Shown: positions 6,122 to 62,142 of the stretch, one piece after another
Layout of the letters: each line of letters begins with the position of its first letter
How positions within the stretch are numbered: position 1 is the first letter of the stretch
Assembly: GCF_963675165.1 (NCBI RefSeq)
Contig: NC_087391.1
Coordinates: forward strand, 1,011,001-1,075,000
From: Halichondria panicea
Taxonomy: Eukaryota > Porifera > Demospongiae > Suberitida > Halichondriidae
Direction: 5' to 3'
DNA: 64,000 nt
Position numbers and translations under genes: made by a program
The notes under the pieces: model-generated
The model's input: the letters and a program-made list of their open reading frames with translations, nothing else
Told to the model about the DNA's origin: nothing
Databases searched by the model: none

Positions 6122-7595
6122 TTAGTTTGTCTTTGGAGGTGTGTTCGGCTGGTTGTCAGGGTGTGACTTGTGATAGGCCTCCAGAGTCTCCAAAGCAGAG
6201 CACACTCTAGTGATGGTCGGGTACACACTCATCTCAACTTTGAACTTGGGAGGGGGGTGAATTGATGTTGGACGTTGGCTGTTAAGCAAACAAAGAACTA
6301 TAGCCATGCATAATTTAGAACCAAGGGAGCTAGTAGATCCATGCACTTTCTGTTTATATACCCTTGACAGAATGTACTGTATACTTATTATTGAATAATA
6401 TAATAATTATGGCATAAACTTTCAATTCATTTTTCCTGCTCAGGCAATAATATAGGATATAGGAAAGAGTCACTCATCTATAGGCTTAAGAACTAGGAAT
6501 GGCAAGTTAAAAAAGATGCACGTACCTTTTAGCGTTATTCACTTGAGGGACAAGACAGACGTCCGCCATTGTCACCTGAGGGGATACACAGTTCCCTATC
6601 AGTGGCAGTGTAAACACACTCACCTCATCCCCCACACAATACTTCCCAGCCGTCTTCTGAAGCACCAGCTCCAAACCTGTACGTGAATGTGATTAAGAAA
6701 TAGGTCTATCGATCATTACTACCACTCCTGTTACTATGCATACATGCACAATCATAATGACTACACTAAAACTAAACTCACTGTCAAATCCTTTGGTGAT
6801 CCAGTGCTTGCCCCACTCTGATTTATTTTCATCTCCAACATACCTTAGATTCTAAGATTATAACATAGTTTAATTTAGTAACCATAAATACTTGTATCGG
6901 CTGGATCCCACCAGCAATAATATTATTAATATTAATATTAGTAGTTATTGGGTATTGACCTGACTTGAGAAAACACATGGATACCAATAGGGGTGCCCAT
7001 GCATAGTATAGTATGTAAGAAGAGAAAAGTGTTGAACTACTGATAACTCTACACACACAAAGTAACATGACTCGCACGTGATGAAGTATTCTAGTAATTT
7101 CTTAGTAAATGTTAACCGTGAGGATGTGGTAATTTACATATGATTCTAGCTAGTCGTTGCATTCAACGTTCAGAGCTGCTCACTGCACACTGATAGGAGA
7201 CAAATCATCTAAATAGAGACAATACTCGGGTTAGTTGGTCCTCTTCACTTGCATTCTTTATTCACTGTTAACAAATTCTATGCGTTGTGTAATGGATGTG
7301 CAACTACAAGCTTGTGCAAACGTCATCAATTCCGAGTTGCGCATGTGCCAATTGACTGGATGTAATGTTACTTTGTGTACAGTTTTCGTGTAGAGCTATC
7401 AGTAGTTCGACACTGATTAATATTACAATGGTCACCTCACCTTTGCTCTCTTGGCAGGGTATCTGTGGGGAACGAGGTACGGTGGGCCTCTCGTCTCATC
7501 AAGGTACTCGATAATGACCAGCTGGGTGGGTGAGGGGATGAACGTGATATAGTATAAATGAGTAGTTAACGTACAGACTCTGTGAGGACTAGTTA
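6122..7595 (-). pseudogene. GSTZ1-A: truncated maleylacetoacetate isomerase copy
   Basis: Minus-strand exon relics match the intact GSTZ1 at 53270-54880. The C-terminal exon (about 6245-6122) ends HPDNQPNTPPKTN. Exon 9 ([11 protein letters not shown]) lies near 6570-6525, exon 8 ([17 protein letters not shown]) near 6677-6623, exon 7 near 6850-6782, exon 5 near 7515-7440, and a stub of exon 4 (LVLTES) near 7590. Exons 1 to 3 are missing. The acceptor of the last exon changed from CCCAG|G to CCCAAG, which removes one base from the frame, and exon 6 is disrupted. It is convergent with NLR-A, 47 bp from its stop codon. Confidence 0.85.
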
Positions 7596-22416: not shown

Positions 22417-22535
22417 TTAGTTTGTCTTTGGAGGTGTGTCCGGCTGGTTGTCAGGGTGTGACTTGTGATAGGCCTCCAGTGATGGTCGGGTACACACTCA
22501 TCTCAACTTTGAACCTAGGAGGGGGTGAATTGATG
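22417..22535 (-). pseudogene. GSTZ1-B, last exon piece
   Basis: This is the last exon of a GSTZ1 copy, convergent with NLR-B. A deletion of about 26 bp (within the stretch encoding RVCSALETLE in the intact gene) breaks the frame. The rest of this copy lies beyond the 7-kb insertion, at 29779-30840. Confidence 0.8.
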
Positions 22536-29560: not shown

Positions 29561-29778
29561 CATGCTTTGGTGGTCTAGTGGTCTGTCTATACATGCATGC
29601 ATGTGTGCACTATGTACAACATTTAGGAACTAGGGACTTAGTGGACATGTCTCGGCGTCTCTGGCCAACCCTCTAAACTTTCAATTCATTTTTCCTACTC
29701 AGGCAATAATAATTATAGGAAAGAGTCACTCACCTATAGGCTTAAGAACTAGGAATGGCAAGTTAAAGATGCACGTAC

Positions 29779-30840
29779 CTTTTAGCGTTATTCACTTGAG
29801 GGACAAGACAGACGTCCGCCATTGTCACCTGAGGGGATAAGCTTACACAGTTCAGTATCAGTGGCAGTGTAAAACACTCACCTCATCCCCCACACAATAC
29901 TTCCCAGCCGTCTTCTGAAGCACCAGCTCCAAACCTGCATGTGAATGTGATTAATAAATTGGTCTATCAATCATTACCAGCATACACAATCCTAATGACT
30001 GTATTAAACACTGTCAAATCCTTTGGTGATCCAGTGCTTGCCCCACTCTGATTTATTTTCATCTCCAACATACCTTAGATTCTAAGATTATAACATAGTT
30101 TAATATTTAGTAACCATAAATACTTGTATGGCTGGATCCCACCAGCAATATTATACTGGATATTGCAATACCTGACTTGAGAAAACACACGGATACTAAT
30201 AGGGGGGGTCCATGCATGCGTAGTATAGTATGTAAGAAGAGAAGAGTGTCGAACTACTGATAACTCTACACACACAAAATAACATGACTCGCACGTGATG
30301 AAGTATTCTAGTAATCTCTTAGTAAAATAATGTTAACCGTGAGGATGTGGTAATTGACATCTGATTCTAGCTAGTCGTTGCATTCAACGTTCAGAGCTGC
30401 TCACTGCACACTGATAGGGACAATTAATCTCTTCACAAAAATCATCTTAATAGAGACAATAGTCGGGTTGGTTGGTCCTCTTCACTTCCACTCTTTATTC
30501 ACTGTTAACAAATTGTATGCGTTGCGTAATGGATGACATTGTGCAACTGCAAGCTTGTGCAAACGTCATCAATTCCGAGTTGCATGCTCATGTGCCAATT
30601 GACAGGATGTAACGTTACTTTGTGTACAGTTTTTGTGTAGAGCTATCGGTAGTTCGACACTGATTAATATTACAATGGTCACCTCACCTTTGCTCTCTTG
30701 GCAGGATATCTGTGGGGAACGAGGTACGGTGGGCCTCTCGTCTCATCAAGGTACTCGATAATGACCAGCTGGGTGGGTGAGGGGATGAACGTGATATAGT
30801 ATAAATGAGCAGTTAACGCACACACCCTGTGAGGACTAGT
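29779..30840 (-). pseudogene. GSTZ1-B, remaining exons, 5' truncated
   Basis: This continues the copy begun at 22535. Exon 9 lies near 29830, exon 8 near 29935-29880, exon 7 near 30080-30015, exon 5 near 30760-30690, and the exon 4 stub (LVLTES) near 30840. The copy stops at the same point inside exon 4 as copies A and C, and exon 6 is damaged. Confidence 0.8.
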
Positions 30841-36705: not shown

Positions 36706-38600
36706 TTAGTTTGTCTTTGGAGGTGTGTCGGGCTGGTTGTCAGGGTGTGACTTGTGATAGGTCTCCAGAGTCTCCAAGGCAGAGCACACTCTAGTGATGG
36801 TCGGGTAAACACTCATCAACTTTGAACCTGGGAGGGGTTGAATTGATGTTGGACATTGGCACTGTAGCCATGCACGCATACGAAGGAAGTCTCTTTATAC
36901 TCCCTTGACAGAATGTACTGTATATATACTTATAGTTATGGCATGAACCAATTAATTTTTCCTGCTCAGGCAATACCTAGGATATAGGAAAGAGTCTCAT
37001 CGAGAACTAGGAATGGCAAGTTAAATATGCACGTACCTTTTAGCGTTATTCACTTGAGGGACAAGACAGACGTCCGCCGCGCCATTGTCACCTGAGTGGA
37101 TACATTATACAGTTCCCTATTAGTGGCAGTGGTACACAGACTCACCTCATCCCCCACACAATATTTCCCAGCCGTCTTCTGAAGCACCAGCTCCAAACCT
37201 GCATGTGAATTAGATGGGCGTGGCCCGCTTCCAAAAGGGAGACGGACGGGTTAAGGTTGCAGCAGAGGATCTAGGAGGTACGACAGGCGCGGTGCAGCTC
37301 AGGCAATTAACAATAATTATCCGCCCACGTCGTATGTTTTTGCTGAGAGTAATCTAATCAGAGGCTAGCTGCACCGCGCCTGTCGGACCTCTTTTGGGTT
37401 GCAGCCCTATCTAGCATTCGTTCTGCTGCACCGCGTACTAACTATAATATTAGCCGCGCCTCTAACCACAAAGCTCAGTTTGCTGCTGAGAAGGGGAGAG
37501 GCTGGGAAGCCAACAAATGCATTACGTAAGGGCTATACAATCTGATTGGTGCTAATGCATTCCTGAATGCAAACTACTTACGTAATGTAAGCAGTCTGCA
37601 ATCTGATTGGTGCTGCATGTTTTTCTGCACAAGAACGAATGCTATAGATAGGGCTGCAACCCGTCTCCCTTTTGGAGGCGGGCCACGCCCATCTACATGT
37701 AAATGTGATTAAGAAACAGGTCTAGCGCCCATTACTACGCATACACAATCATAATGACTGTATTAAAACTGAACTCACTGTCAAATCCTTTGGTGATCCA
37801 GTGCTTGCCCCACTCTGATTTCTTTTCCGTCATCTTCAAAATACTTTAGCACTTTTAGATTCTAAGATAAAAACTGATTATAACATAGTTTAATTTAGTA
37901 ACCATAAATACTTGTATCGGCTGGATCCCACCAGCAATATTGGACCTGACTTGAGAAAACACACGGATACTAATAGGGGTGCCCATGCATAGTATAGTAT
38001 GTAAGAAGAGAAGAGTGTCGAACTACTGATAACTCTACACACACAAAGTAACATGACACACACGTGATGAAGTATTCTAGTAATCTAATAATGTTGACCG
38101 TGCATGAGGATATGGTAATTGACATCTGATTCTAGCTAGTCGTTGCATTCAACGTTTAGAGCTGCTCACTGCACACTGATAGGAGACAATTAATCTCTTC
38201 ACAAAAATCATCTAAATAGAGACAATAGTCGGGTTGGTTGGTCCTCTTCACTTCCACTCTTTATTCACTGTTAACAAATTGTATGCGTTGCGTAATGGAT
38301 GACATTGTGCAACTGCAAGCTTGTACAAACGTCATCAATTGCGAGTTGCTCATGTGCCAATTGACAGAACGTTACTTTGTGTACAGTTTTTGTGTAGAGC
38401 TATCGGTAGTTTGACACTGATTAATATTACAATGGTCACCTCACCTTTGCTCTCTTGGCAGGGTATCCGTGGGGAACGAGGTACGGTGGACCCCTCGTCT
38501 CATCAAGGTACTCGATAATGGTCAGCTGGGTGGGTGAGGGGATAAATGTGATATAGTATAAATGATAAGTTAATGCACAGACTCTGTGAGGACTATAGCT
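36706..38600 (-). pseudogene. GSTZ1-C: truncated copy
   Basis: Minus-strand relics of exons 10, 9, 8, 7, 6 and 5 and a stub of exon 4. In the last exon two bases are lost from the stretch encoding FKVEMSVYP, which breaks the frame. The intron between exons 8 and 7 carries the MITE at 37211-37695. The 5' breakpoint is the same as in copies A and B. Confidence 0.8.
37211..37695. mobile_element. MITE with about 38-bp TIRs and 8-9-bp target duplication
   Basis: Termini TAGATGGGCGTGGCCCGCTT and, reversed, TAGATGGGCGTGGCCCGCCT. The flanks are CATGTGAAT (37202-37210) and CATGTAAAT (37696-37704). Copies A and B are uninterrupted here. An 8-bp duplication suits hAT-type elements. An inner inverted repeat (GACAGGCGCGGTGCAGCT, about 37283-37390) suggests nesting. 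Confidence 0.85.
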
Positions 38601-45700: not shown

Positions 45701-48700
45701 AGGGCCACACGAAGAGATATTAAAATGAAAGCACCGCGGGTGCTGTGATGCCTCGGTGGAGGTGCCAAAGCTATACATAATATAAAACTACTAATAGCTA
45801 GCTTTTATACACACATTGATTATGATGAATTTTGCTGCATGCAATCAACCGAATAGTGGGTAATGATCAATCATGATTGTTGTTAAAAACGATCGATGCC
45901 AAAATTAATCCAAGGCTCTCTGCTCACTCTTGCAGCTACCAATAGCTAGCGTTCTAGTGCAGAGCTAACTACTAAGTAGAGTAGTAACACTCGGTGAACA
46001 AGTTTTGCTACGGACTCTTCTGAAAAGGCTGCAATAGCATTCCAAGTAAGCAAAACTAGGCATAACTCGAGAACGAAGCATTATTTTGCAAATCCATCCA
46101 AGTAAACATGACTAGAAGCCTATAGAAACTCTTACTTGCACTTGATTCATCCTTGAGCAGCTGTAGCGGTCTACACACACACACACACAGACACACAAAC
46201 ACACTACCGTATACCTCGCTTGCGCATGCGCACCGAGGCATGAAAAGGTTACTGAAAGCTCACAAGAGGCTGTTTTCCTTGGCTCTGTCAGCCATTTTAA
46301 GTTTTATTTTGTGAGAGTTTCCTGGCCTGGAACGAAAAAACGCTTCGTGTAGCCCTCCAGAATGGTAAGAAGTATCCTATAAGAGCAAGAACACAGAGCT
46401 AGAAGTATTTTTGGAAGCATAAAATGACTACTAGTTTGTGTTGTTTCTAGAGCTTCCACTGAAAGATATTTTGAAGATTGATCCTGATTGATACACCGAT
46501 ATATTTATCATGTGTGTGCTTCAAACTTCTCTCGTGGCATTTTATAGTTTCACAAAAATCATTATAAGAAATCATGAATATATTCATGAGCAAACTGTTT
46601 ACCGTAACCTTAATAATAGAACGGTTGTGAACAGCTTCCTTACCTTAGAGACGATGGATGTGTATGACATGTGTGTTTTGCATGGGCAATTTTAGTGGGG
46701 TCAAAAATCAAATGCTAGTGCGTAACGCAGTAAGAACATTTGCCTTCTAGCACAAGGGAAGAAATAGCAGTAGGATATATGAGAAACAAGAAATTGAATT
46801 TTTGGAGTGACCTAATGCCTTGTGAAAGAACAAATTCAATAACTGCTACCTTTATTAATAATTACAGATAAAGGAATTATTTTAAGTCTCGCAAACTTGA
46901 AAGACGTCATCAATCAGTTGTGGGATGCTCGTACTGAGTGGTTCCAGATAGGAGTTAATCTTGGGCTGACACCAGTGGATCTGAAAGCCATTGAAATGAA
47001 GCATCGAGCTAGTCCTGACTTGAGTTTTCAAGATATGTTAGAAGTTTGGTTGAAAAACACCGAAAATGTAACGACGTGGAAAGATCTTTCGAATGCTTTA
47101 CATGCTGTTGGAATGGTTAGAATGGCTACCGAGATCGAGAGAAAATACAATATCGTTCCCTTGAAAGAAATAGGTGAGTTGATTTATAGTAACACATTGT
47201 ATAATTATTATTTTTATATACATGTATACATGTAGGTCCCATAGTCGAAGATCATCTAATAAGCTCAGTGCGAGAGATAGTTCATTTGCCAATGGACGAC
47301 TGGTTTGAAGTTGGGCTGAAACTTCAGCTTAGTGAGGAAGCTCTTAAGCAGATTGAGAGAGACTATCCCCAACATGAGAGAAGGAAATCAGAAATGCTAT
47401 CAAGATGGTTTCAGTCCCACCCAGACGCATCATATGAAGAACTGATAAAAGCTCTTGCTTCAACTGGTAACAAGTCTGTGGCTGAGGAGCTTTGTTCCAA
47501 ACAAGGTAAAGTACACACATATATAGTACGCCTGTGATGATGGCAGATGGTAGTGTGTGTATATATTAATTGATTGTGTGATCATTACTTATGTAGGTGT
47601 TCCAGCAGAAATAGTAAAATATGAAATTGTTTCAAGGTATATAATGGAATACACTAGATACCTTAAAGAAATGTACTTGAGTGAGCCTATTATGCAAGAA
47701 GATCCATGGCCGCCTCCTCCAAGTGAGGAATTCACTAAACTCACTCTTATTTTAAAGACCAAAAATGGAAACGATAGCGATGAGCAAATAGATTTGGAAA
47801 ATATTTTCGAAGACTTGGAGAAACCTTTTAAGATACTCATAGACGGAGATCCTGGCTCAGGAAAGTCAACTCTATGTAGGAAGATTGTTCACAATTGGTC
47901 TAAAAAGAAAATGGCTCAAGATTTTAACTTAACTGTTCTCGTCCCTTTAAGAGATCCAGAGATAGTTAACTCAAATAGAATCGACGATCTTTTCTACCAT
48001 GATGATTCTGTTCTTCAAATGAAAGTAGTGGAGCATGTTAGGAAAAATCAAGGTGCTAATGTTCTCCTTATAATGGATGGCTATGATGAGCTTTCTCACA
48101 AACAAAGAACGAAACACTCACTATTTTTACAAATCTTGCAAGGCAAAAAACTAGCTAAATGCTCAGTACTGGTAACTTCCCGCCCTCATGCCTCACAAAA
48201 ATTAGAGAGCTTGCATACTCTAAGTCAACACGTTAAATTATTAGGGTTTAGTAAAAGGGACATCATGAGCTGTATTTCTTCATCAATACATGGCGAAAAA
48301 GGAAAAAAACTACAGTATCTGTTACGTTTTGAGAAGCTTGAGCTTCTAAAAGTTTGTGAGAACCCTTTAAGTTGTGCCATCATCATTTTTGTGTATAAAC
48401 AAGAGAATTATGACTTACCACTAACCCTCACTGGAACTTACGAATATTTTATTTCGAATGTTCTCACCAGGGAAGCAGACATACAAGGCATCGAATGTAA
48501 ATCAATGCTCGAACCAGACCTTTTAAATTTGTGTAAGCTTGCATATGAGAATAGTATCAATGACAGAGTTGTACTTGAAGATGAAGAAGTTAGAAAACTC
48601 ACTGGTCAAAATTTTAAATCACTAGGACTACTCACTGCCTCTAAAGGCTTCATGAGTCGTGGCCGAAAACTGAATTATGCTTTCACTCACCTGACGGTAC

Positions 48701-50730
48701 AAGAATATCTAGCTGCAAAATGGGTTCACGAAACACTGTCCCCCTTGGACGCTAGTAATTTCTTAGCTTGTAATGTGATGGATGATCGCTTTAGGTACAT
48801 ACTGCTTTTCCTAGCTGGTCAATCCAAACTACATCATCAGTCTTATGAACATTTCATTTGTGACAAACAGTTAGATTTGTGCACGTTCGAGGAAACAACA
48901 GATCATAAGGCATTTGTGACAAAAATAATGTTTATATATGAAGCTCAGAATATTGTATTGTGCCCTCTTTTATCATCATTGATTAAAGGGCGAGTGCTAA
49001 AGATAATGGCATCTGGAATTAATGAAAAGTTATCTGCTTCTTTAGCTTTCTTCATTGACAAGAGTTGTTGCACGTGGGAGGTTGTTAATCTGATGCTTGT
49101 TCATTCAAATTTTGTCCAGTTTGTGAGCAATTTTAAAAGCACTAACAAGTTGACAATTGTAAAAAGCTTTGTTCTAAATCACGAACCCATTATCACAGAC
49201 TACGGTTGCTGTACTATTAACGACATAAATAGATTGTTATGCCAAGATGCGTTCTGTAATGTAAACAGCTTGTCAGTTACAAGTCCAGTTGATGAAAAGG
49301 AATGTGCTTATTTTTACGTTGAGGAAAAACAATCAGCAATGTTTTTAAGAATGCTAATAATGATGGGAAACATACAACATTTATCTCTACAAGGAGTAGT
49401 TGGTGCTACCAATGATACATTTCATGATTTTATTGGTAATAACATGAACTATCTTGAGTCTCTGGATATTAAGTCATCTCAGCAGAGCTTGGAAATCCTT
49501 TGGGCATTAGGCTTTGCAGTTCGTGGACGTCTTCAAGTCATGAAGAGTTTGTCATTGCAGGTACTACTCCCATCTGAAATAGAACATAAAGTTGACACAA
49601 GATTAGGATTTACTGTCAAAGAAAACTTTTTCAACCTTGACTCTCTCATTTTAAGATCATGTTGGAATACAAAGGATCTCTTTGGTTCGAGTTTCAGCCC
49701 AACATTGTCTAACTTTTTATATGGGATTGCTATGAACCATACTTTGCAAAGGGTAACCCTAGGAGATATGGATCTTAATCCAAAAGGTGTGTGTTACATT
49801 CTTCAAAACAACCACACATTGCACACATTTAATCTCGTCTTTGTTGAGCTGACGAAAAAACTGATTTCCTCACTAAGCATTGGCTTAAAGAAGAATAAAA
49901 CCTTAAGAAGTCTTTGTCTGATAGATTTTCAAGATCGGACTGTTGGAGTAGGCTCTGCTATATCTTTTGCAATCACCAATGCTAGAACCGTTGCATTAAC
50001 ATGCGTTTCTGATTTAGAAATGGATATCGAAGCAAAACCAGAAAATCCCTATCATCTTCTTCTGGATTCAATTGTTACCAGTAAATTGCAGTCAGTAGTA
50101 TTAGATTTTGAACCCGGAAAATTCTCTTTTAATTCTGCTAAATTCTTTAAGCATTTAATCCGAATGCTCATCAAGGACAAAACCTTAACACGATTCACTC
50201 TATATTATTCGTACTACTCTGAAGAACACCTAGCTGAAATCGCTCGAGCTCTTGTGATAAGTGGAAAAAGAAATGAAATTGATTTCACACTTGGGAATAG
50301 TCTAACACCATCTATTTATTCCAGATTTTCTCATTCACCAACGTCAATATTGAATGGAAATAGACGTCCTGGGGATTACCAAATCCCTATAGTACAGGAC
50401 CAAGAGTTACTAATTCAACAAAAAGTGGATGAGTTTAAGGATATTATGTTGAAAAACATGCTAAAGACACTCGTGTTTATTTTGGCCATACGTAAACAAA
50501 AACAAAATAAAATTTTGGAGCAACTAAGCTTTGATTTGTTAACGTATTCTATTCTGAAAGTTCTTCATAAACGCATCCACAGACAAACGGTATTCCTCGA
50601 TATATGGAAAGAAACGAGGATGCTAAGAAGTCTGCTGAACACTCTCTCATTCATTCTAATGCTGCGTAAACAGAGACAACAAGTATTCCTTGATACCCTT
50701 AGATACCATGTCATGTACATTCCAGAATAG
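42788..50730 (+). CDS. NLR-D: 2A-Death-Death-NACHT-LRR receptor, intact by eye
   Basis: Exons: 42788-43040, 46868-47173, 47236-47505 and 47597-50730, giving 1320 residues. Domain order is as in NLR-C. Residues 1-75 form the basic leader and hydrophobic segment up to NPG; Death domains occupy about 90-185 and 190-275, and NACHT begins about residue 340. Walker A is GDPGSGKST; Walker B is LLIMDGYDEL, with Met for the usual Phe. The leucine-rich part differs most from the other copies (for example NDTFHDFIGNN). Intron 1 is 3.8 kb and full of nested elements, while B and C have about 300 bp. Exons 2 and 3 and the intron resemble NLR-A more than B or C. Confidence 0.88.
42989..43015 (+). other. 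2A-like ribosome-skipping motif GDVELNPGP, NLR-D
   Basis: Identical to the motif in B and C and placed right after LSLLILS. The predicted break lies after residue 75, between NPG and P. Confidence 0.85.
43351..43557. repeat. Palindromic MITE in NLR-D intron 1
   Basis: CCAAGAGTATATGATAGAGA and the reversed right end CCAAGAGTATATGATAGAGA match exactly. The arms continue through ATCGAACGTAGGCATACTG. NLR-A keeps a shortened copy (about 1217-1380). Confidence 0.85.
44025..44876. mobile_element. Long palindrome (852 bp) inserted in NLR-D intron 1
   Basis: GAGTAAACAACCGATTATCG on the left mirrors CGATAATCGGTTGTTTACTC on the right, and the homology runs almost to the centre near 44450. TATA flanks both ends (44021-44024, 44877-44880). 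NLR-A intron 1 has the uninterrupted sequence CCAGCTATATACTG. No protein is encoded; mirrored short frames are artefacts. Confidence 0.88.
44979..45524. repeat. Foldback-type element, family of the inner arms at 11470/13467
   Basis: It begins GTATAGGATATACCACACCT and ends with an imperfect inverted match (GTGTGGTATAAG). Similar arms occur in the composite insertion at 11462-13500. A minus-strand frame (45357-45175) has no similarity I recognise. Confidence 0.5.
45529..46609. mobile_element. TTAA-flanked (piggyBac-like) non-autonomous element
   Basis: Termini GGTTACGGTAAACCGTTTGC and, reversed, GGTTACGGTAAACAGTTTGC lie between TTAA (45525-45528) and TTAA (46610-46613). NLR-A intron 1 has a single TTAA in the matching context (CCTACTTAATAATAGAAC, near 1955). 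TTAA is the piggyBac target. Family X copy 2 is nested inside. Confidence 0.8.
45725..46241 (+). mobile_element. Repeat family X, copy 2 (517 bp)
   Basis: This is the least interrupted copy. The 5' end ATGAAAGCACCGCGGGTGCT contains a small hairpin, and TGCCTCGGTG near the start is answered by CACCGAGGCA at the 3' end. The 3' end also holds a 25-bp hairpin (CCTCG..GCGCATGCGC..CGAGG). An (AC)n run precedes the 3' end. No coding capacity. Confidence 0.7.
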
Positions 50731-50796: not shown

Positions 50797-52954
50797 TTAA
50801 TTATTATTTGTCTTTGGAGGTGTGTCTGGCTGGTTGTCAGGGTGTGACTTATGATAGGCCTCCAGAGTCTCCAAGGCAGAGCACACTCTAGTGATGGTCG
50901 GGTACACACTCATCTCAACTTTGAACCTAGGGGGGGGGGGTGAATTGATGTTGGACGTTGAGTGTTAGTAAATTAAAAAACTATAGCTATGCATATAGTT
51001 TAGAACCAAGGGAATAGATCCATGCACTTTCTGACAGAATGTACTGTATACTTATTGTACATAATAATTATAGCATAATCATTTTTCCTGCTCAGGCAAT
51101 AATATAGGAAAGAGTCACTCACCTAAAGGCTTAAACTAACCCTACCTTTTAGCGTTATTCACTTGAGGGACAAGACAGACGTCTGCCATTGTCACCTGAG
51201 GGGATATACGCAGTTCAGTATCAATGGCAGTGTAAACAGACTCACCTCATCCCCCACACAATACTTCCCAGCTGTCTTCTGAAGCACCAGCTCCAAACCT
51301 GTACGTGAATGTGATTAAGAAATAATGGTCAATCGATCATTACTACCACTCCTGTTACTACGCATATACAATCATAATGACTAAACTGAACTCACTGTCA
51401 AATCCTGTGGTGATCCAGTGCTTGCCCCACTCAAATTTCTTTTCATCTCCAACGTACCTTAGCACTTTTAGATTCTAAGATTATAACGTGGTAGCTTAAT
51501 TTAGTAATCATACAATTAAATCTTACCTGTATCGGCTGGATCCCACCAGCAATGTTACTAGATATCGTCCTGACCTGAGAAAACACAGTAAGCATGATGG
51601 ATACTGATAGGGGTGCCCATGCATAGTATAATTATTATTAAGAAGAGAAGAGTGTTGAACTACTGATAACTGTACACAAAAAACATAACTCGCACATGAT
51701 GAAGTATATTGTAGTAATCTCCTAGTAAATGGTAACCGTGACGTTTTAGGGGTGCTGTAATTGAACAATGACATCTGATTCTAGCTAGTCGTTTGTGTTC
51801 AACGTTCAGAGCTAACGGATAGGAAACAATCTTTTCACAAAAATCATAGTCGGGTTGGTCTTCTTCCCTTGCACTGTTGCAGTTCGCGACCAATTATACT
51901 CTTGGTATTACAATTGTTCACGCTCAATGTACCTTACTTTAAATTAGCATTTATTAGAACCTTATTAACACCTTAATAAATACTACTACCTTAACCATGA
52001 TTTGATGTTGATGTTGATATCATACTCTTCTCTAACAATTCTCATTGTTAGTGCTCCACTTCCTCCCTTTGTTGTTGTGCGAGCCTCTGGGGCCCTGCTC
52101 CACGTATTTAAGGTTTTGTTTACCTTTTTTGCCTTACTTCACTTTAACTTCGTTTTACCCTGTATTGTCAGTTGATGTTTTGCTTCTCAATCTGGTTAAG
52201 CTACACTGTGAAGTCAATTTGTCTATAACTAGTTGTTGTTGCCTATAGCTAGGAGCCTGTCTCTAGCTAATTTGTCTAGCCTGTCTAGAATCCCTCTACA
52301 CCAAGATAAGAGCTCAACAACAATGGCCCCCTCACCCGTGCTCTCTTGGCAGGGTCTCCGTGGGGAACGAGGTACGGTGGACCCCTCGTCTCATCAAGGT
52401 ACTCGATAATGGCCAGCTGGGTGGGTGAGGGAATGAATGTGATAGTATAAATGAGCAGTTAACGTACAGACTCTGTGAGGACTAGTCCGTCTATCTCCAA
52501 GGTAGGTACCACACACTGAGGATTCAAAGCTTTGTAGGTGTCAGTAAACTGTCAAAAAAACGTCTCATAATTAAATTTTACACATAAATCATTAATTACC
52601 TGCTGTCCGCCATCTTTCACCAGATGAACAGCCTTGTACTCATACTCTATACCTTTTAGCGCAAGAGCTGCACTGAACAAGATAACATTAAAACAGGGGC
52701 CGTGGGCTTGACTATGTCTAGGGATAGCGGGTGGACCAGTAATTATTAGGTAGCTAGACTATTACCCTCTCACCAAATCTCACTCTCCAGGAGCAGGAGC
52801 TGGGGTAGAACGAGTGGAGGATGGGCTGGAGAGGGGTATACAGGTGTAAGGTCTATGTACGTCAGACGATTCAATGAATATGTGTGTTTACTATAATTAT
52901 ATTGACTAGACTGAGCATTAGTTTGTACCATACCCTGATAGTTTGAGCTGCCAT
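50797..52954 (-). CDS. GSTZ1-D: second complete GSTZ1-like gene (maleylacetoacetate isomerase)
   Basis: Ten minus-strand exons parallel those of the gene at 53270-54880. Exon 1 is MAAQTIR (52954-52934), then [142 protein letters not shown] and FKVEMSVYPTITRVCSALET, ending KTNNN. All frames and splice sites look intact. The glutathione-activating SSCSW motif is kept, but the residue before it is Pro where the neighbour and human GSTZ1 have Arg. Expected activity is glutathione-dependent isomerisation of maleylacetoacetate in tyrosine breakdown. It is convergent with NLR-D, 66 bp from its stop. Intron 5 carries about 400 bp of extra sequence (about 51890-52320). Confidence 0.8.
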
Positions 52955-53269
52955 CTTTTAATATTGTCTGTGTCTCACACACACCTTCCTTGCAGCTAGT
53001 GTCACTGTGGATTTCAAGAGGTGTTCCAAGCCAAATCAATGCTTATTGCTGACTCAACAAACAATACCATACATTCTTCATAAAACCTCAAATGTAAAAA
53101 TAATAATGGACCGTCACCAAAGAGTTTAGTTCGTCTTTTTATATACTGTTAGGTTATACTATTTCCACACTCACATTCACTCAACATCACAACGTAATTA
53201 TTAAAACCTAAAATGTCAAAAATAACAATGGGCAGTCGCAGTCAGTCAGTCAGTCGCCAAAGAGTTTAG

Positions 53270-54880
53270 TTATGTCTTTGGAGGTGTGTCGGGCTGGTTG
53301 TCAGGGTGTGACTTGTGATAGGCCTCCAGAGTCTCCAAAGCAGAGCACACTCTAGTGATGGTCGGGTACACACTCATCTCAACTTTGAACCTGGGAGGGG
53401 GAGGGGGGGTGAAAAGGATAAATAAAAGGTTGTGCAAAACAGCTAGCAGATACTATAAATAGATGGTAGCAATTGAAATATTGGAGCTATAGCTAGCTAA
53501 GCTATAGATCTACATTGATCGCTATAAATTATATATAGAATTCTAGTGGAAGGAATATTTGATTTCATGTACATATACCTGTTAGCATTATAGAGCTGTG
53601 GTACTAGACAGAGGTCAGCCATCGTCACCTGAGAAGAGGTGCTACATGTAGTCGTTGGTTACTAATATACAGACTCACCTCATCCCCCACACAGTACTTC
53701 CCTGCCGTTTTCTGAAGCACCAGCTCCAAACCTGTGAAAGTGATGAACACTACTTTGAAAGAAAATCCTACTACACAGAAATAGTACAGCGTATGTTATA
53801 ACCTAACAAAAGCCATACACAAGCTGCAGCTGTTCCTAGAAATTGCTTAACCAGTATTAAAGAGAAACATTATATAGCGAGGTGAGACGACAAAGATACA
53901 AAAAGGACTACAAAGACCTCTTGAAATAAGAGCAAACCATGCATTTATCAACATGCAAGCAATTGTATACATTAGAGAACCACCGTACTGTCAAATCCTT
54001 TGGTGATCCAGTGCTTGCCCCACTCAAATTTCTTTTCATCCCCAACATACTTGAGCACCCTCAGGTTCTGAAATTGCAAATCCAATATAAACAGCAGGAG
54101 CAGATTATTTTACACCTGTATTGGCTGAATCCCAGCAGCAATGTTGTTGGATATCGACCTGACCTGAGAAATGAATATCGACCATTAAAATAATGTAGGA
54201 CAACAGTATACATTCCAACAAATGGTCACCTCACCCGTGCTCTCTTGGCAGGGTCTCCGTGGGGAACAAAGTACGGTGGGCCTCTCGTCTCATCAAGGTA
54301 CTCGATAATGGCCAGCTGGGTGGGTGAGGGGATGAACGTGATATAGTATAAATGAGCAGTTAACGTACAGACTCTGTGAGGACTAGTCCGTCTATCTCCA
54401 AGGTAGGTACCACACACTGAGGGTTCAAAGCTTTGTACGAGTCTGCAAACTGAACAATAATGAAAAATCAACAAACACAGACGTCTAAAATTGTTTGGAT
54501 GATCGTAAACATACCTGTTGTCCGCCATCTTGTACCAGATGAACAGGTTTGTACTCGTACTCGATACCTTTCAGTGCAAGAGCTGAAGGAAGACGTACAC
54601 AAATATTTAATTATTCAATAGACGACTGAATTAATTAGCAACGAAAATTGTACGATACTATGGATCTCACCAAATCTCACTCTCCAGGAGCAGGAGCTTC
54701 TGTAGTAAGAGTGGAGGATGGGCTGCATGAGGGGGTGGGGTGCATGAGGTTGCTGTCAGAGACAGAGGGTATATTCTACAGTGCAGTGTTGGGTGGATGA
54801 GGCGTGCCAAAGGCAGCTGTGCGTTCCTAGCTTATGGATGAACTTGGTTTTACTTGTTAACTCACAGTTTCAGCTGCCAT
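53270..54880 (-). CDS. GSTZ1: GSTZ1, maleylacetoacetate isomerase / glutathione S-transferase zeta
   Basis: Ten short exons give 215 residues, against 216 in human. The start is ATG at 54880 (MAAET, donor GTGAGT); exon 2 begins after CAG with PILHSYYRSSCSWRVRF, carrying the zeta-class SSCSW motif whose Ser and Cys contact glutathione. Later exons give [102 protein letters not shown] and HPDNQPDTPPKT. ATG at 54728 is a weaker alternative start. The enzyme converts maleylacetoacetate to fumarylacetoacetate in cytosolic (and possibly mitochondrial) tyrosine catabolism. It is head to head with POMT2 (270 bp between start codons). This is the likely parent of the four other copies in the window. 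Confidence 0.93.
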
Positions 54881-55150
54881 CTCTTCAGAAGTGCCTCTCA
54901 AGCTCAACAGCAAAAGGGTCTCTTGTTTGAGTTCTGTTTTCTCCTTACGTTGTAATAAAGAAAAATTGGGTTTCAGATTGTGTGCGGCTAGTCAACGAGA
55001 CGGGCTAAATAGCCACATGGCTGTAAATAGACCCTGCCACACCTCTGTTTTCAGATAACTGAAAGTCATTTAGAGACCATCTATCAAGTCAAGCTTCAAC
55101 ACAGCCACAACCTCATACAAATCATTACCTATCCCCTAGCAACCATCTCT
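54881..55150. promoter_or_regulatory. Shared divergent promoter region of GSTZ1 and POMT2
   Basis: Only 270 bp separate the two start codons, so promoters and 5' UTRs of both genes must lie here or overlap. No TATA box at a convincing position and no CpG-rich stretch is evident. Confidence 0.6.
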
Positions 55151-57195
55151 ATGGCATCCCCTGAAGAGAGAGAGCCTCAGAGTGAAGACTATCACTCGAA
55201 CTCCGATTCCCCTGTTACCAAGACTCCGGACCTGGGAGTACCGTCTTCCTCACATTACTGTGGTCGTCTCTATAGCTCTCCATTAAATGACTCGGATGTG
55301 GCCTACTATGTTGGACTGGCTGTCATCACTCTGGCGTCCATAGCAACTAGACTGTATAAAATAGACGAGCCGTACCATGTAGCGTAAGTCACCCTCACAA
55401 TAAGTATTTGGAATTTGTTGATTGATATTCGGCTAGGCTGTGTAGAAAGGTTGTATTACTCAATTGAGATTATAGAATATTCCACAATGATTATATACCA
55501 GTAACGGTTCTGTATGGTTTATGGTTTGGTGATATATTTTCCACACACTTTCCACACACTTCAGGTGGGATGAGACCCACTTTGGTAAGCACGCCAGCTG
55601 GTACATTCAAGGAAGGTTCTTCTTTGATGTCCACCCTCCACTAGGAAAGGTGAGCCATGGTTTGCTTAGGGTAATGGTGTGTGGAGCTTGTTGTAAATAG
55701 ATGATTACGACAGGAAATGCCAATGATATTTCAAGGTGATACTTTACCCATACATGTCTCCCCCTCTGAATCAACTGTCTGTCTGTACATGCTGTATGTA
55801 TGCACAATTAGTGGCTTAACTCTTGTGAGAAGAATGTTACAGTACTGACAATTCTGTTCCCACATAATTTTTATTATGAATATTCAAGTCTTGTTGCTGC
55901 TACACTTTCATAGTTTATCGTATGTAGCCCATAATTGTTTTTAATTCCTCTTGCTTGTAATTCTCACGCAATAGCTGGTCATAGTTATTGTAATGTGCCA
56001 CTGCTATTACATTGCCATAGCTACTACTGTACAGTATGTACTTTCTGGGCCAAACAGATTATGTAGTAATAATTATGTCTTTTTGTTGGCCTTACACTAC
56101 GCAACCAATCTTTACTCTTGCCCCCCTCTCCCCCACCACCAGTTGATTATAGCGGTAGCTGGAGTGCTCACTGGCTACAACGGTTCCTTTGAGTTTGAGG
56201 AGCCAGGGCAACAGTACAAGGACACTCCTTACGTCGGCATGAGAGTGGTACGTGCATACACTCTGTGTACAGCATTAGATTAGAGCGTGTTTGAAACTAT
56301 CTCTGAATATTGGTTTCACTGGTATAGTTACAAGTTAGAGGCTGAGCATTTGTAATACTCTCGTAGATTAGGTGATAACAAGGTGTGGGTGTAATCACTG
56401 CCGTACATGTAGGTTGAGTTTGGAATGTTGTAATCGTATATACCTATATTTATGTACATTTCTAAGTGATGTGTACGTAACCATTGATCATAATACCTAA
56501 GTCTTCATAGTCACCACCGTATTTGTACTTCCCCCTGTGCAGGCGTGTGCTGTGTTGGGCCTCCTAGTAGTGCCCCTAGGCTATCTCACAGTCTGGGAGC
56601 TGGTCCGCTCGACCACAGCTGCTCTGTTGGCCGGCGTCATGCTTCTCTGTGAAACGGGCACTCTAGTACTCTCACAGTACATACTTCTAGACCCTCCATT
56701 GATCTTCTTTATCATGGCCGCCTCTTTCTGTACGGCAAGATTCATCAACTGTAGAAACGAGTGAGTTAATGATGTCTCTCTCTCTCTATTCTCTGTGCTA
56801 ATTATTCACCGCTTGTCTTCTCTTGTTACTACAGACCATTTGATATGGAGTGGTGGTACTGGCTGTCACTCTCAGGGATGTTCATAGGATGTGCCTTCAG
56901 GTGAGCCCCGGTTCTTTTGCCTTAATTATTCATTGACCCTTTTTATGCTTTTAGGGGTAAACCTTTTTGTTCATGTTCTAGTTAACATGTGCTACACACT
57001 GATATTTTTTTTTCTAAAGCTAGCCTTTCTTCCTTCTTTACGACCTGTAATCAAGGCTAGTCCATTGTATTGTTTGTAATGCTCCTTTTTCTCTGTTCTA
57101 GTGTAAAGTGGGTGGGGCTGTTTGTGATTGCTCTGGTTGGCCTGACGACACTCAAGGACCTCTGGGACCTCTGGGGAGACCTCACCCTCACAATG
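55151..57195 (+). CDS. POMT2: POMT2, protein O-mannosyltransferase 2, N-terminal part only
   Basis: Exons: 55151-55383, 55565-55649, 56143-56247, 56543-56760, 56835-56900 and 57102-57195, about 267 residues in frame. After a Ser/Pro-rich cytosolic start come the first membrane span ([15 protein letters not shown]) and the luminal loop with [13 protein letters not shown] and [10 protein letters not shown]. The acidic pair DE here is essential in this family. Further spans carry [18 protein letters not shown] and [13 protein letters not shown]. The enzyme works with POMT1 in the ER membrane to attach mannose to Ser/Thr of proteins such as dystroglycan. Human POMT2 has 750 residues, with three MIR domains in the missing part. 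The last exon ends [10 protein letters not shown] with a donor, but no following exon is visible before the opposite-strand gene ending at 57900. Confidence 0.88.
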
Positions 57196-57899
57196 GTGGG
57201 TGGGTGCATGCCACTGTCGTAGGAAATAATGCCATAAAAAATTAGGTGTCTTTAGTGCACAAAATACGGAGGAATTTGTGAGCTTTAGCTGGCGCTTCAT
57301 TAGAGTGGGGGCCACATTTATTTGCAAGGATTAGAGTGCTAAGATTAGGGTGGCACTTTTTAGACTGTTTACAACATTTATATAAAAAGAGTGGCCCACT
57401 CTTTGTAATGGCTCATGTAAGTTTTTGGTTTGGTGATGTGTTGAGTATAGCTAGTGTATACAGTGACTGTAAGAAAGAGATGGCCTGCTAACACAGATTG
57501 AACACATGCTATGGAGACTTTGGGGCTTATTAACTTACAAATGTATAGCAGTATTAATTATGGATGGTTAGTTAGTTAGTTGACTTGTTTATAAGGTGAT
57601 CCATGATAGTCACGTTTGACTTCACAGTCAAATAAATTATACTTATTCTTGTGTCTGTGTAAATATGAACTACTAGTTATTATTGTCATTAGCAGCGCTA
57701 GAGTATTCCCATGCGTTCTCACTCCTAAGATCTTCAATCCAAGCCATCAGAGGAGCTCATACCCATGCATGTTGAATGATCTTCTTCCCTAGTATAGTCA
57801 ATATAGTAATCACAGTGGTAATTAATGTACATTACACATGTTTATTCTCGTGTCTGTGTGCATAATAGCTATAATAATAATAAGTTGTTTGATGTTGAC
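57196..57899. other. Gap after the last visible POMT2 exon
   Basis: I searched by eye for the next POMT2 exon on the plus strand and found none. The sequence is AT-rich with no obvious repeat family. It ends at the stop codon of the minus-strand membrane-protein gene. Confidence 0.5.
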
Positions 57900-60331
57900 T
57901 CACACTTGAATATAATCGTATTCCGGTTGCTGCTCATTTCTTGTTGGGCCCAGACCATCGTTCTCATAGTAGTCAGCTTCAATATTAGTAGCATTGGTTG
58001 CACTGTACACAGGGTTCTGATTCATTTCAATGGGTGTGTCCACAGTCTCGTGCTGGTGGGTGTGGTTAGCTTCGTGGTCCGTAGTTGGTGTTTCAGTTGT
58101 ACTCATACTGTACACGGGATTTTGGTTCATTTCTATGACTTCCCTATCTGTATGGAGTTAAATTTTAAAAGTGGCCGTCAGACTGTATAATTATAGCTAC
58201 ATGTAGTACATGTGACAATGCTTCAACAGTACTGCATCTAGTCATAGATTAGTTTACACATGACTGATTTGTGCAGCATGTACGTACTTGTATTAACTCG
58301 AACTGTAATCTAACTCTGCTTTTGTTGGCAGTCATCTACAGCATATACTGAGATTAGCTAGATGTGTCTAGTGCTTCACCTGTAGTAGTGGCAGTACTGA
58401 TGTCTTGGTTACCACTCTTTCTGATATGGACTGTAAGTAGGATGAGGAGCACGGCCATTACTAGAATGATGAGCAGCAAAACTCCACCCACTCCTCCAGC
58501 GATACCACCCACCACTCCCACACTTAGTGAAGAGTCTGTAGTAGAAATAAGTACACTCTGTGTAGACTATATAGGTTGATTAGCACTCACCAGGTTCACA
58601 GTTACTGCCAGTGAATCCAGACAGACAGGTCGTACATCTTGTGGATATGTTTCGTCCAGATAAACACACTGCACAGTCACGGTTACTATCATAGCCTAAC
58701 AGGCAACTTGAGCATTTAATGTTCAGATCGTAGTTAGCCACACACTCAGTGCAGGTAGGATTGAAGTTATCCAAGCATGTTTGACAGAGTGTTGCTGGGT
58801 CCCCTCCTGGTAGAGCACACACACTGCAGTCTGTATCAGTGAACCTGTCTGGTTGTAGGCAGAGGGAGCAGTTGGTGACTGGGTCTCTGTTGGGTAGGCA
58901 ACTAGTGCAGTCTGAGGTGATGTCCCAGCCTGGTAGGCACTGGGTGCAGTTGGTAGAGGGATCTCTGTTGGGTAGACACTGGGTGCAGTCAGTAGAGGAA
59001 TCTCTGTTGGGTAGGCACTGGGTGCAGTCGGTCGAGGGATCTCTGTTGGGTAGGCACTGGGTGCAGTTGGTAGAGGGATCTCTGTTGGGTAGGCACTGGG
59101 TGCAGTTGGTAGAGGGATCTCTGTTGGGTAGACACTGGGTGCAGTCGGTAGAGGGATCTCTGTTGGGTAGACACTGGGTGCAGTTGGTAGAGGGATCTCT
59201 GTTGGGTAGGCACTGGGTGCAGTTGGTAAAGGGATCTCTGTTGGGTAGGCACTGGGTGCAGTCGATAGAGGGATCTCTGTTGGGTAGGCACTGGGTGCAG
59301 TCGGTAGAGGGATCTCTGTTGGGTAGACATTGAGTGCAGTTTGTTAGTGTATCATAAAACTTAAGACAGGCTGTGCAATTGGTGGTTGGGTCATAGTTGG
59401 TCTGTACACAAGTGGAGCAGCCAGTAGTAATATCCAGGTTGTAGAGGCAGTCGCTGCAGGCTACAAGAGGTGAAGGGTCTAATCGATTATCAGTACATCT
59501 TAGAGTGCCATCATCTTGACATGTCGCCACTTGTGGATTTTTCTGATGTGTGGTGGTACAGTCAGGTCCACAGAAACCAGGAGAGCACTCGACTCTGAAA
59601 CTCATGGTCATGTGAGATATGTTGTGGAATCCAGTGAACGTCATCTCCTCTGTGAAGTCTGCTCCAAGTTGGAGGTTGTCCAGGTCAATCAACAGACTGT
59701 CTATTATGTTCGGGAGTTCGCTGTCCAATGCTTCGATAAAGAACTGAATTCGCCCCTACAGAGCCACGTAAGAATTTATGTCAAAAACCATGCACTACAT
59801 GTAGAAAAACACAATCTTACCGTCCACACATTAAAGTCTGTTCTTGAAACAGGTAGAGGATTGTGTGCTACTCCCAGTAGTGCTGTTGGACCTTGACCGA
59901 ATGTTATGCTCATTTCAATGAATGGGCAAGTGCTGGGGGACATTGTACAGTCTGTGAAGAAGTACCCCATGCTGGGTCTTGTCTCCAGTGATGCTCCGAA
60001 TGGTCTGATGGCCCAACGGAACCTGGTGTCACATCTCTCCTCTCCTGTATTGGTACAGTTGGTGTTTCTGAATGGTAGCTCATCACAGCACACTGGTATT
60101 ACACTAGCACATTCAGCACATAGTCCGGTTGGGTTGGTGTAGTTGACCAAGTTGACTGTCAGTACAAAATCAGCTCTCACCTGTAGTAATAATAGTGAAG
60201 TGTATAGTAGCTAGTGGCCTTCTATTCAGTGTAATATGCCCTACATTAATATGTTACTCGTAACTCACCGATGGGAAGCTTTTACACACACAGACTGCCA
60301 AACTCCAAAGTAGTACAATCTTAGCTTTCAT
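57900..60331 (-). CDS. Notch-ligand-like (MNNL/DSL-like) type I membrane protein with cysteine repeats
   Basis: Exons: 60331-60269 (signal peptide MKAKIVLLWSLAVCVCKS), 60180-59821, 59755-58591, 58535-58380 and 58147-57900, about 663 residues. Exon 2 has an MNNL-like region (DFVLTVNLVNYTNPTGLC, CDTRFRW), continued in exon 3 by FFIEALDSELP. A DSL-like core follows (RVECSPGFCGPDC ... TCQDDGTLRC) but lacks one of the usual six Cys. Next come at least ten 13-residue repeats TQCLPNRDPSTDC and variants, then more CxxC units ending CLSGFTGSNC. Exon 4 is a Gly-rich lead into a membrane span (LLLIILVMAVLLILL). The cytosolic tail has two NPVY motifs and ends YDYIQV. The protein probably acts at the cell surface; a Delta-type role is inferred from the N-terminus only. 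A tandem paralogue follows at 62243. Confidence 0.75.
58918..59340 (-). repeat. 39-bp coding minisatellite
   Basis: About eleven tandem 39-bp units encode 13 residues each (TQCLPNRDPSTNC type) within exon 3 of the gene above. Units differ mainly at the D/N before the last Cys. The plus-strand frame through this region is a shadow of the repeat. Confidence 0.9.
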
Positions 60332-60453
60332 GTTGAGCCTAGCCTGAGGCGTAGCATGTGTTGACCTTTCAGTTATGTCGTACACTAATCACGTGACATC
60401 ACTAGCCACAAATGTTTATACTAGAGGTGCTTTACCATCATAGTGTTAGGATT

Positions 60454-61008
60454 CAGAGGAGGTCGAACACCACTTGACCTTTCTGCTAATTATGACCATT
60501 TAGCTTTGATCCTTTTCACTACCCACGCTCTGCTAGATTCGCCCATAGAACCGCCCAACTATAGTACAATAGTAGCTGTGGTACCACTCGAGGCTAGACT
60601 TTGGAGACTACCATAGTATAGCCTAGCCTCTCGATCTTCTAGCTTTAGAGTCTCAGAGTTCTGTTCATCGGTACTTTCCAAGCCAGAGTTTATTTTCGGT
60701 CTGTTTGTTTCTCTGTTTCCAAACAATGGCCTGTTGTGTGCTATATTCTGACTGTAGACTAGTGAGGAGTGAGGACCAGGTTAACAGGTGATTAGAGGAA
60801 CTGGCAGAGCTATAAGATCAAGAGGCTAGGCTAGCCTACTGTGGGTCGTCTCCTGAGTCTAGATCTAGTGTTGCCTCGAGTGTTGCCACGACCACTATTG
60901 TAGTACTAGTTGGGAAGTCTAGCAGAGCGTGGGTAGTGAAAAGTGAAAAAGATCAAAGATAAAAGGTCATAATTAGCAGAAAGGTCAAGTGGTGTCCGAC
61001 CTCCTCTG
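60454..61008. mobile_element. Foldback element upstream of the membrane-protein gene
   Basis: CAGAGGAGGTCGAACACCAC on the left and, reversed, CAGAGGAGGTCGGACACCAC on the right; the arms extend about 200 bp through TCTGCTAATTATGACC and CACTACCCACGCTCTGCTAG. It lies about 120 bp upstream of the gene's start codon and could affect its promoter. Confidence 0.85.
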
Positions 61009-61175
61009 GTTAAGATTAGGGTTTCAAATTTAATTGTTCATTACACGGCTGGCTTACTACACCATGCTATTGGTTCGTGCAATGTTTTTTATAGTAATAA
61101 TAGATGGTGGCTATTCAATCCTGCATGAAACACACAATGATAGTCTAACATCTTTAGGCCTATGCGGTGTATTAT
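61009..61175. other. Short spacer, no feature seen
   Basis: AT-rich sequence between the foldback element and repeat family X copy 3. No coding signal. Confidence 0.5.
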
Positions 61176-61946
61176 ATGCCTCGGTGCACTTGCGCACAGT
61201 GGCATACGGTAGTGTGTCTGTCTAGACTGCTGTATAACTGCTCAATGATCAATGTAAGTAAGAGCCTTCTAGTCATTGTTTTCTTGATTAGCAAATAGTA
61301 CTTTGTTTTTGAGTTCTGGCTATAGTTTTACTTTGAATGCCATTGCAGACTCTTCAGACTCATGCGTAGCAAAATCTGTTGATATAACTTAAATTAGCTA
61401 TGCTATACTTAGTACTTAGCTCTGCACTACCATTGGTCAGCAGCAAGAATAAGAAAAAAACCCGGCATGATGCAACCATTAATAATTATGGACTTTAAAC
61501 TTTTGGTATCCTTTCTAGCAACGGTTATTTTCCACTCTTTTGCACCATTCCCTGCATGCAAATTAATGTATAAGAGGTATAGTATTCAGAATTGTATTTT
61601 GCGCCATCCAAAAAATGGGGTGGGTGGGGCTCATTCTAAGGCACATTAAAATATCAATTAAATGGGTGGGGTTAGAGGTTAGAACAATTATTGTTGTGCT
61701 AAGAAGAATTGTAGACCAACTTTAGAGAGCTCTTAACTGCTAACTCAATGAGACATTGTCAGTTATTTTATACGAGATAAAAGTTCAATGTCATTATCAG
61801 ATTGTATCATTTCACTTGCCTGCCAGGTCCAAAATTTGGCTAAAAATCCGTGAAACAGATTGGTCTGGCCTAGTAGTCAGCTAGTACTTTCATGTCGTAA
61901 AGCTTTAATGCCTCCACCGAAGCATCAGCACCCACAGTGCTTTCAT
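61176..61946 (-). mobile_element. Repeat family X, copy 3, inverted
   Basis: On the minus strand the 5' end is ATGAAAGCACTGTGGGTGCT (61946 on) and the 3' end is GCACCGAGGCAT (61176), matching the copies at 40244 and 45725 in reverse. The middle (about 61380-61880) is different and may be another insertion. Confidence 0.65.
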
Positions 61947-62103: not shown

Positions 62104-62142
62104 CACACACACACACACACACACACGCACATGCACACACAC
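62104..62142. repeat. (CA)n microsatellite
   Basis: A run of CA dinucleotides with two interruptions, downstream of the second membrane-protein gene. Confidence 0.9.

What the first reader, a model, noticed from the sequence alone, without database searches (positions are those of the whole stretch)
53270..57195. GSTZ1 and POMT2 head to head, as in human
Seen: GSTZ1 (-) and POMT2 (+) start codons are 270 bp apart. From memory, human GSTZ1 and POMT2 are adjacent and divergent at 14q24.3. The two enzymes share no pathway, so conservation from sponge to human would suggest an ancient bidirectional promoter that cannot be split easily.
Basis: partly seen in the sequence, partly recalled or inferred. 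Interest (0 to 1): 0.75.

Follow-up and report, generated by a model that had tools for sequence, protein, structure and literature searches.

The report
Ancient head-to-head GSTZ1–POMT2 gene pair
In this sponge a tyrosine-breakdown gene and a protein-sugar-coating gene start back to back, the arrangement remembered for humans, and the starting block is duplicated so that two copies of the front half of the second gene seem to share one back half.

Summary
The window lies in Halichondria panicea (100% protein match on a contig exactly as long as C15). An intact 215-aa GSTZ1 (complement 54880..53270) and POMT2 (from 55151) diverge with exactly 270 bp between start codons.

The tail, found once, starts 62.6 kb downstream. 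The head-to-head block recurs 41 kb away, and both copies look constrained. POMT2 therefore looks two-headed with one tail; no RNA evidence was available.

Antiquity is supported at chromosome level. Four of 4 tested markers of human 14q24.3 (list partly recalled) map to C15, against 0 of 4 controls. GSTZ1 and POMT2 share a contig length in 12 of 15 species, this one included. Amphioxus proximity is published (PMC3087553). Head-to-head order in intermediate lineages could not be tested.

"Cannot be split easily" is weakly supported: an intact tandem GSTZ1 lacks a divergent POMT2, 3 of 15 species differ, and the 270 bp are not more conserved between copies than introns.

The parts
53270..54880 (-). 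GSTZ1 copy A (maleylacetoacetate isomerase), 10 exons, 215 aa, intact
   Evidence: identical to NCBI protein P0001 of Halichondria panicea
54881..55150 (.). 270-bp intergenic region between the two start codons, presumed divergent promoter
   Evidence: 93.3% identical between copies A and B with 15 gap columns; CpG o/e 0.34; inverted CCAAT and TTACGT present in both copies, no Sp1, ETS, NRF1, TATA or CTCF consensus
55151..57195 (+). POMT2 head, copy A: exons 1-6, residues 1-267 of 738
   Evidence: the same 267 residues begin NCBI model P0121
57196..64000 (+). start of the presumed POMT2 intron 6 (62.6 kb from copy A to exon 7 at C15:1130765)
   Evidence: no exon-7-like match before 1130765 in the 164 kb searched
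57900..60330 (-). first member of an array of Cys-rich transmembrane receptor-like genes inside presumed POMT2 intron 6 (39-bp coding repeat; Pfam Mucin-like); borders approximate
   Evidence: 14 N-terminal-domain matches of 100 aa or more between head A and the tail, all minus strand
50797..52954 (-). GSTZ1 copy e: second intact tandem GSTZ1, 220 aa, without a divergent POMT2
   Evidence: open frame, 193 of 210 aa identical to copy A (exons 2-10), dN 0.038, dS 0.349
36706..38595 (-). GSTZ1 fragment d (part of exon 4 to exon 10)
29776..30840 (-). GSTZ1 fragment c (part of exon 4 to exon 9); its exons 5 and 7 fit NCBI isoform X3 best
22417..22525 (-). GSTZ1 fragment b (exon 10 only); exact match to the end of NCBI isoform X3
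6122..7593 (-). GSTZ1 fragment a (part of exon 4, exons 5, 7-10)

Best explanation
This is an ancient divergent GSTZ1-POMT2 pair, most likely transcribed from one compact divergent promoter in the 270 bp, on a chromosome that corresponds to the human 14q24.3 neighbourhood. In this sponge the pair's start region (GSTZ1, intergenic DNA and POMT2 exons 1-6, ending about 30 bp past the exon-6 splice donor) was duplicated in tandem about 41 kb apart. Both copies have been kept under purifying selection, probably with help from gene conversion. The single POMT2 tail would then be spliced to head B over 21.5 kb or to head A over 62.6 kb, across an intron filled with a minus-strand gene array. Shown: gene structures, duplication, coding constraint, one tail, chromosome linkage. 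Inferred: shared promoter, use of both heads, gene conversion, same orientation in intermediate animals.
For: Intact genes and 270-bp spacing. Second block at C15:1105189-1109245, 92% nt identity. POMT2 exons 1-6: 9 synonymous and 0 non-synonymous codon differences; GSTZ1: 6 and 1. If one copy were neutral, 7.1 and 15.1 non-synonymous changes would be expected from intron divergence, P about 8e-4 and 5e-6. The tail is found once, in order, in the stretches searched, and genome-wide PF16192 rings only there and on C10, where the second PMT gene lies. Phase fits: exon 6 ends in phase 0 and exon 7 begins KVIAQHFLARV. NCBI models one 738-aa POMT2 that joins head and tail. No N in the 164 kb. Linkage: globin, Aha1, SNW and TMED8-like GOLD markers all on C15, chance about 4e-6 if independent, against 0 of 4 control loci. 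Amphioxus POMT2 and GSTZ1 close to the Ngb orthologue (PMC3087553).
Against: No transcript data: neither start sites nor the exon 6-7 junctions were seen. NCBI models can be computed joins, and heads A and B give the same protein, so P0121 does not say which is used. The intergenic region (93.3%) is not more conserved than POMT2 introns (97.7%) or GSTZ1 introns (94.0%). GSTZ1 copy B has lost its intron-5 acceptor AG and is readable only if both splice sites shift by 5 nt. Same contig does not mean adjacent; 3 of 15 species differ. That the four markers stand for NGB, AHSA1, SNW1 and TMED8 themselves was not tested beyond the domain.
Confidence: 0.6

Rival explanations
1. The pair is ancient, but head A in the window is a non-functional or dying partial duplicate; only head B (nearest the tail) makes POMT2, so the live GSTZ1 and POMT2 promoters may already be on different copies.
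For: Head B is 41 kb nearer the tail and its exon-6 donor is nearer the consensus (gtgagt against gtgggt). Three further POMT2 exon 1-3 copies at C15:1.91-1.97 Mb are frameshifted relics. GSTZ1-B has a changed intron-5 acceptor.
Against: No frameshift, stop or amino-acid difference between the heads in 801 coding bases, against 62 gap columns in the introns; P about 8e-4 if one head were neutral.
Confidence: 0.25
2. Copies A and B are two haplotypes or an assembly error, not a real duplication.
For: On the POMT2 side identity is 96.8-100% in 9 of 9 windows of 200 bp from 55100 to 56899, a range that alleles of a variable animal could show.
Against: No N in the 164 kb. The flanks are not collinear. 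The neighbouring GSTZ1 copies (e and g) are only 83% identical and g carries an inverted piece. The tail occurs once.
Confidence: 0.12
3. The head-to-head order arose separately in sponge and vertebrates, by chance, inside a conserved chromosome.
For: Head-to-head genes within 1 kb are common in Amphimedon (11,379 genes; PMC4773876), and the two genes share a chromosome in most species compared.
Against: With roughly 840 genes on C15 (7 per 50 kb, a density taken from a passage of PMC4773876), a given partner in a given orientation is expected about once in 1,700. Amphioxus also has them close together (PMC3087553).
Confidence: 0.07
4. The pair is kept by inertia or by some other regulatory element (for example an enhancer lying in a neighbour), not by a shared promoter.
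For: No excess conservation between copies, no CpG enrichment, and none of the Sp1, ETS, NRF1, TATA or CTCF consensus motifs in the 270 bp. An intact solo GSTZ1 exists.
Against: An inverted CCAAT box and a TTACGT element lie in the 270 bp of both copies (no chance level computed). The duplication kept both starts together in both copies, while 3 of 3 POMT2 start copies found without GSTZ1 are relics. The sample is small and confounded.
Confidence: 0.35

Closest known systems
Human and amphioxus NGB-POMT2-GSTZ1 neighbourhood (14q24.3; B. floridae scaffold 245; PMC3087553, passages read)
   Same: GSTZ1 and POMT2 are neighbours, and globin, Aha1, SNW and TMED8-like domains are on the same sponge contig
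   Different: The sponge globin is 3.9 Mb away, not beside POMT2, and the sponge block is duplicated with a split POMT2
Trichoplax and sea urchin POMT2-globin adjacency (PMC3485006, abstract and passages read)
   Same: POMT2 keeps an ancestral neighbour in very distant animals
   Different: That paper concerns the globin side and does not hold the word GSTZ1; it found no such co-localisation in its other genomes, Amphimedon among those analysed
Conserved microsyntenic pairs of unrelated animal genes (Irimia et al. 2012; recalled, the paper is not held)
   Same: Two genes of unrelated function kept adjacent over very long times
   Different: Whether this pair is in their list was not checked
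Clusters with several alternative 5' parts and one shared 3' part (UGT1A, clustered protocadherins; recalled)
   Same: Several heads, each with its own start, upstream of one set of tail exons
   Different: Here the heads encode the same 267 residues and each carries a divergent partner gene; use of both is not shown

Membership tests
GSTZ1 / maleylacetoacetate isomerase | Passes the curated family cut-off over full length | tested here: met
   TIGR01262 274.1 bits, cut-off 171.05, positions 2-210 of 211
GSTZ1 / maleylacetoacetate isomerase | Zeta-class SSCxWRVR motif near the N-terminus (motif recalled) | tested here: met
   RSSCSWRVR in copy A, aligned to 1fw1; copy e reads PSSCSWRVR
POMT2 (PMT2 subfamily) | PMT, MIR and 4TMC domains in one protein | tested here: met
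   P0121, 738 aa, PF02366, PF02815, PF16192; the window itself holds only PF02366
POMT2 (PMT2 subfamily) | Closer to PMT2 than to PMT1/PMT4 | tested here: met
   yeast Pmt2 177 bits against 173, 158 and 129 for the other three sequences matched, a narrow margin on residues 1-267; full protein 61% identical to the Amphimedon POMT2-like protein; no tree was made
Bidirectional promoter | Divergent starts within 1 kb | tested here: met
   270 bp between start codons; transcription starts not mapped
Bidirectional promoter | Both transcripts start in the shared region | not testable with these tools
   no transcript data
Bidirectional promoter | CpG-rich region with Sp1/ETS/NRF1 sites (recalled for vertebrates; Sp1-like and Nrf-1 motifs also reported for Amphimedon in PMC4773876) | tested here: not met
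   CpG o/e 0.34 against 0.53 for the window; those consensus sites absent; present are an inverted CCAAT, TTACGT, a CANNTG, an RFX half-site and a YY1-like site over the GSTZ1 start codon (no chance level)
Ancient microsyntenic pair | Same chromosome in distant phyla | tested here: met
Ancient microsyntenic pair | Same adjacency and orientation in intermediate lineages | not testable with these tools
   no animal genome other than the window's own was searchable here; amphioxus 'close proximity' from PMC3087553
Gene with alternative heads and a shared tail | More than one intact set of 5' exons upstream of one 3' set, phases compatible | tested here: met
Gene with alternative heads and a shared tail | Transcripts from more than one head reach the tail | not testable with these tools
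   no RNA data; proteins from the two heads are identical

The most novel reading that the evidence does not exclude
A bidirectional promoter unit inherited since before the sponge-human split has been duplicated as a unit, giving a two-headed POMT2: two GSTZ1/POMT2 starts, identical in POMT2 protein, feed one tail across 21.5- and 62.6-kb introns that host an expanding receptor-like gene array. In mirror image, one GSTZ1 head (copy e) is spliced to the tails of other tandem fragments, as NCBI isoform X3 suggests.
Probability: 0.45. Interest if true: 0.65.

Novelty: new member of a known kind. Interest (0 to 1): 0.5.

Why it matters
If the head-to-head order is shown in a few intermediate animals, this becomes a clean case of a gene pair with unrelated functions kept together since before sponges and other animals parted, which makes the question of what holds such pairs together testable. 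The sponge adds a natural experiment: the unit exists twice, a solo GSTZ1 exists beside it, and POMT2 is split into duplicated heads and one tail. Comparing expression of A, B and e would show whether the divergent arrangement is needed.

Tried and rejected
Considered and set aside: (1) that GSTZ1 copy B is certainly broken. Its intron-5 acceptor CAG reads CAT, but a donor and an acceptor both 5 nt downstream exist in the sequence and restore the same residues (RVRS), so it may still be readable. (2) That POMT2 is simply truncated in the window: a tail exists 62.6 kb away. (3) That the 1.9-Mb POMT2 pieces are further heads: all 3 cover exons 1-3 only and each has frameshifts; no GSTZ1 match lies there (best candidates only, 10 kb around each). 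(4) Looking for a CpG/Sp1/ETS/NRF1 promoter in the 270 bp: not found.

Limits: the protein lists show the best 120 rows of 6846, 1753 and 1753 proteins. An earlier table gave 7 of 9. The chance level for the four markers assumes independent, uniform placement, and the markers were picked by me from recalled 14q24.3 genes; no fifth marker was searched.

Literature: the searches that named GSTZ1 or POMT2 listed 6, 2, 3, 2 and 2 papers. Of these I read passages of PMC3087553, PMC3485006, PMC8434712, PMC4243390, PMC11285508 and PMC3491394, and saw the others as listings only. In what I read, none describes the pair in a sponge or a shared GSTZ1/POMT2 promoter. PMC8434712 reports one human methylation region annotated to both genes; PMC3491394 lists POMT2 among promoters activated through a CTCF site. 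Searches were searches on sponge promoters, microsynteny and the species; from them I read passages of PMC4773876 and PMC5560861. Only open-licence papers are held.

Full report
Observation. GSTZ1 is intact on the minus strand at 54880..53270: ten exons, all introns GT-AG, 215 aa, above the curated cut-off of the maleylacetoacetate isomerase model and closest to glutathione transferase zeta 1fw1 among solved structures. POMT2 begins on the plus strand at 55151; six exons up to 57195 encode residues 1-267, a PMT domain closest to yeast Pmt2. The start codons are 270 bp apart. The window is part of a 5,981,790-base contig (C15) of a 131-Mb genome; an identical protein is named Halichondria panicea and lies on a contig of the same length.

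POMT2 is not complete in the window. Its tail is found once, in order, at C15:1130765-1147335, in the 164 kb and the three distant 10-kb stretches searched; genome-wide, the C-terminal domain PF16192 rings only there and on C10, where the second PMT gene lies. The phase of exon 6 fits exon 7. The NCBI model P0121, 738 aa, begins with the same 267 residues and continues with the tail. From the window's head the gene would span 81 kb with a 62.6-kb intron 6.

The head-to-head block is duplicated. Window 53169-57225 aligns to C15:1105189-1109245 at 92%. The second block has all ten GSTZ1 exons and POMT2 exons 1-6 without gaps. Between copies, POMT2 shows 9 synonymous and 0 amino-acid codon differences and GSTZ1 shows 6 and 1; introns are 97.7% and 94.0% identical with 62 and 118 gap columns. 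If one copy were drifting, 7.1 and 15.1 amino-acid changes would be expected (P 8e-4 and 5e-6). The neighbouring GSTZ1 copies (e beside A, g beside B) are only 83% identical and g is rearranged, so the duplication looks old and the block looks held together by selection, probably with gene conversion (inferred). There is no N in the 164 kb examined. This points to two working heads and one tail; transcript proof is missing.

GSTZ1-B has lost the AG of its intron-5 acceptor, but donor and acceptor sites 5 nt further on give the same residues: a possible case of intron sliding.

Other copies. GSTZ1 copy e (52954..50797) is open over 220 aa, 193 of 210 residues identical to A in exons 2-10, dN 0.038 and dS 0.349; it has no divergent POMT2 and lies 315 bp below the end of copy A. 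Fragments a-d lie further left. NCBI isoform X3 (P0009) begins with the residues of copy e's head, has an exon 5 that fits fragments a and c exactly, an exon 7 that fits c best, exons 8-9 that fit c or d, and ends with residues found exactly only in fragment b. So head-tail splicing between copies is modelled for GSTZ1 too. Three POMT2 exon 1-3 copies at C15:1.91-1.97 Mb carry frameshifts and have no GSTZ1 beside them.

Surroundings. To the left lies a NACHT-domain open frame (47554-50730). To the right, between head A and the tail, 14 matches of 100 aa or more to the N-terminal domain of a Cys-rich transmembrane protein lie on the minus strand, with a few shorter pieces.

Antiquity. Markers of human 14q24.3 (NGB, POMT2 and GSTZ1 from PMC3087553; AHSA1, SNW1 and TMED8 recalled): the only globin match, Aha1_N, SKIP_SNW and a GOLD_2 domain as in TMED8 are all on C15, 4 of 4. 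C15 is 4.6% of the genome; chance about 4e-6 if independent. Controls: three Nop-domain loci and the second PMT gene are on C6, C2, C17 and C10, 0 of 4 on C15. Across species, the GSTZ1 and POMT2 proteins come from contigs of identical length in 12 of 15 species with both values (the sponges Halichondria and Corticium; Nematostella, Dendronephthya, Xenia; Glandiceps, Ptychodera, Antedon; Tubulanus, Mytilus; Latimeria, Mugil) and differ in Geodia, Exaiptasia and Argonauta. Amphioxus orthologues of POMT2 and GSTZ1 lie close to the neuroglobin orthologue (PMC3087553, passages). In Trichoplax and sea urchin POMT2 is adjacent to a globin (PMC3485006, abstract and passages). So linkage is ancient; adjacency in the sponge fits an ancestral pair, but head-to-head order in intermediate animals was not tested here, and human orientation is recalled.

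Mechanism. Most likely one compact divergent promoter serves both genes. Nothing in the 270 bp proves it: between copies they are 93.3% identical, less than POMT2 introns, CpG is depleted, and Sp1, ETS, NRF1, TATA and CTCF consensus sites are absent. An inverted CCAAT box, TTACGT, one CANNTG and an RFX half-site are present in both copies, and a YY1-like site covers the GSTZ1 start codon; no chance level was computed for these. Divergent genes within 1 kb are common in Amphimedon (PMC4773876, passages).

Verdict. A real, probably ancient divergent pair; the claim that it cannot be split is weak; the unexpected part is the duplicated head with a single POMT2 tail.

Noticed in passing
C15:1106147-1106216 (GSTZ1 copy B, intron 5): The acceptor AG has become AT, but splice sites 5 nt downstream at both ends give the same protein: possible intron sliding.
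   Followed up: partly
window 57900-64000 and C15:1070821-1130016: Array of minus-strand Cys-rich, mucin-like transmembrane genes inside presumed POMT2 intron 6; 14 N-terminal-domain matches of 100 aa or more; the first member has a 39-bp coding tandem repeat at 58932-59341.
   Followed up: partly
window 47554-50730: 1058-aa open frame with a NACHT domain (NLR-like); DNA from 50500 onward, taking in GSTZ1 exon 10, recurs at window 5845, 22143 and 36427, so such genes and GSTZ1 fragments may have been duplicated together.
   Followed up: partly
C15:1033454-1063954: NCBI GSTZ1-like isoform X3 (179 aa) seems to join the head of copy e to exons of other fragments (c or its neighbours, and b) up to 30 kb away.
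   Followed up: partly
C15:1908151-1909584, 1930453-1931742, 1966389-1967846: Three decayed copies of POMT2 exons 1-3, minus strand; beside the third a copy of the mucin-like gene was found.
   Followed up: partly
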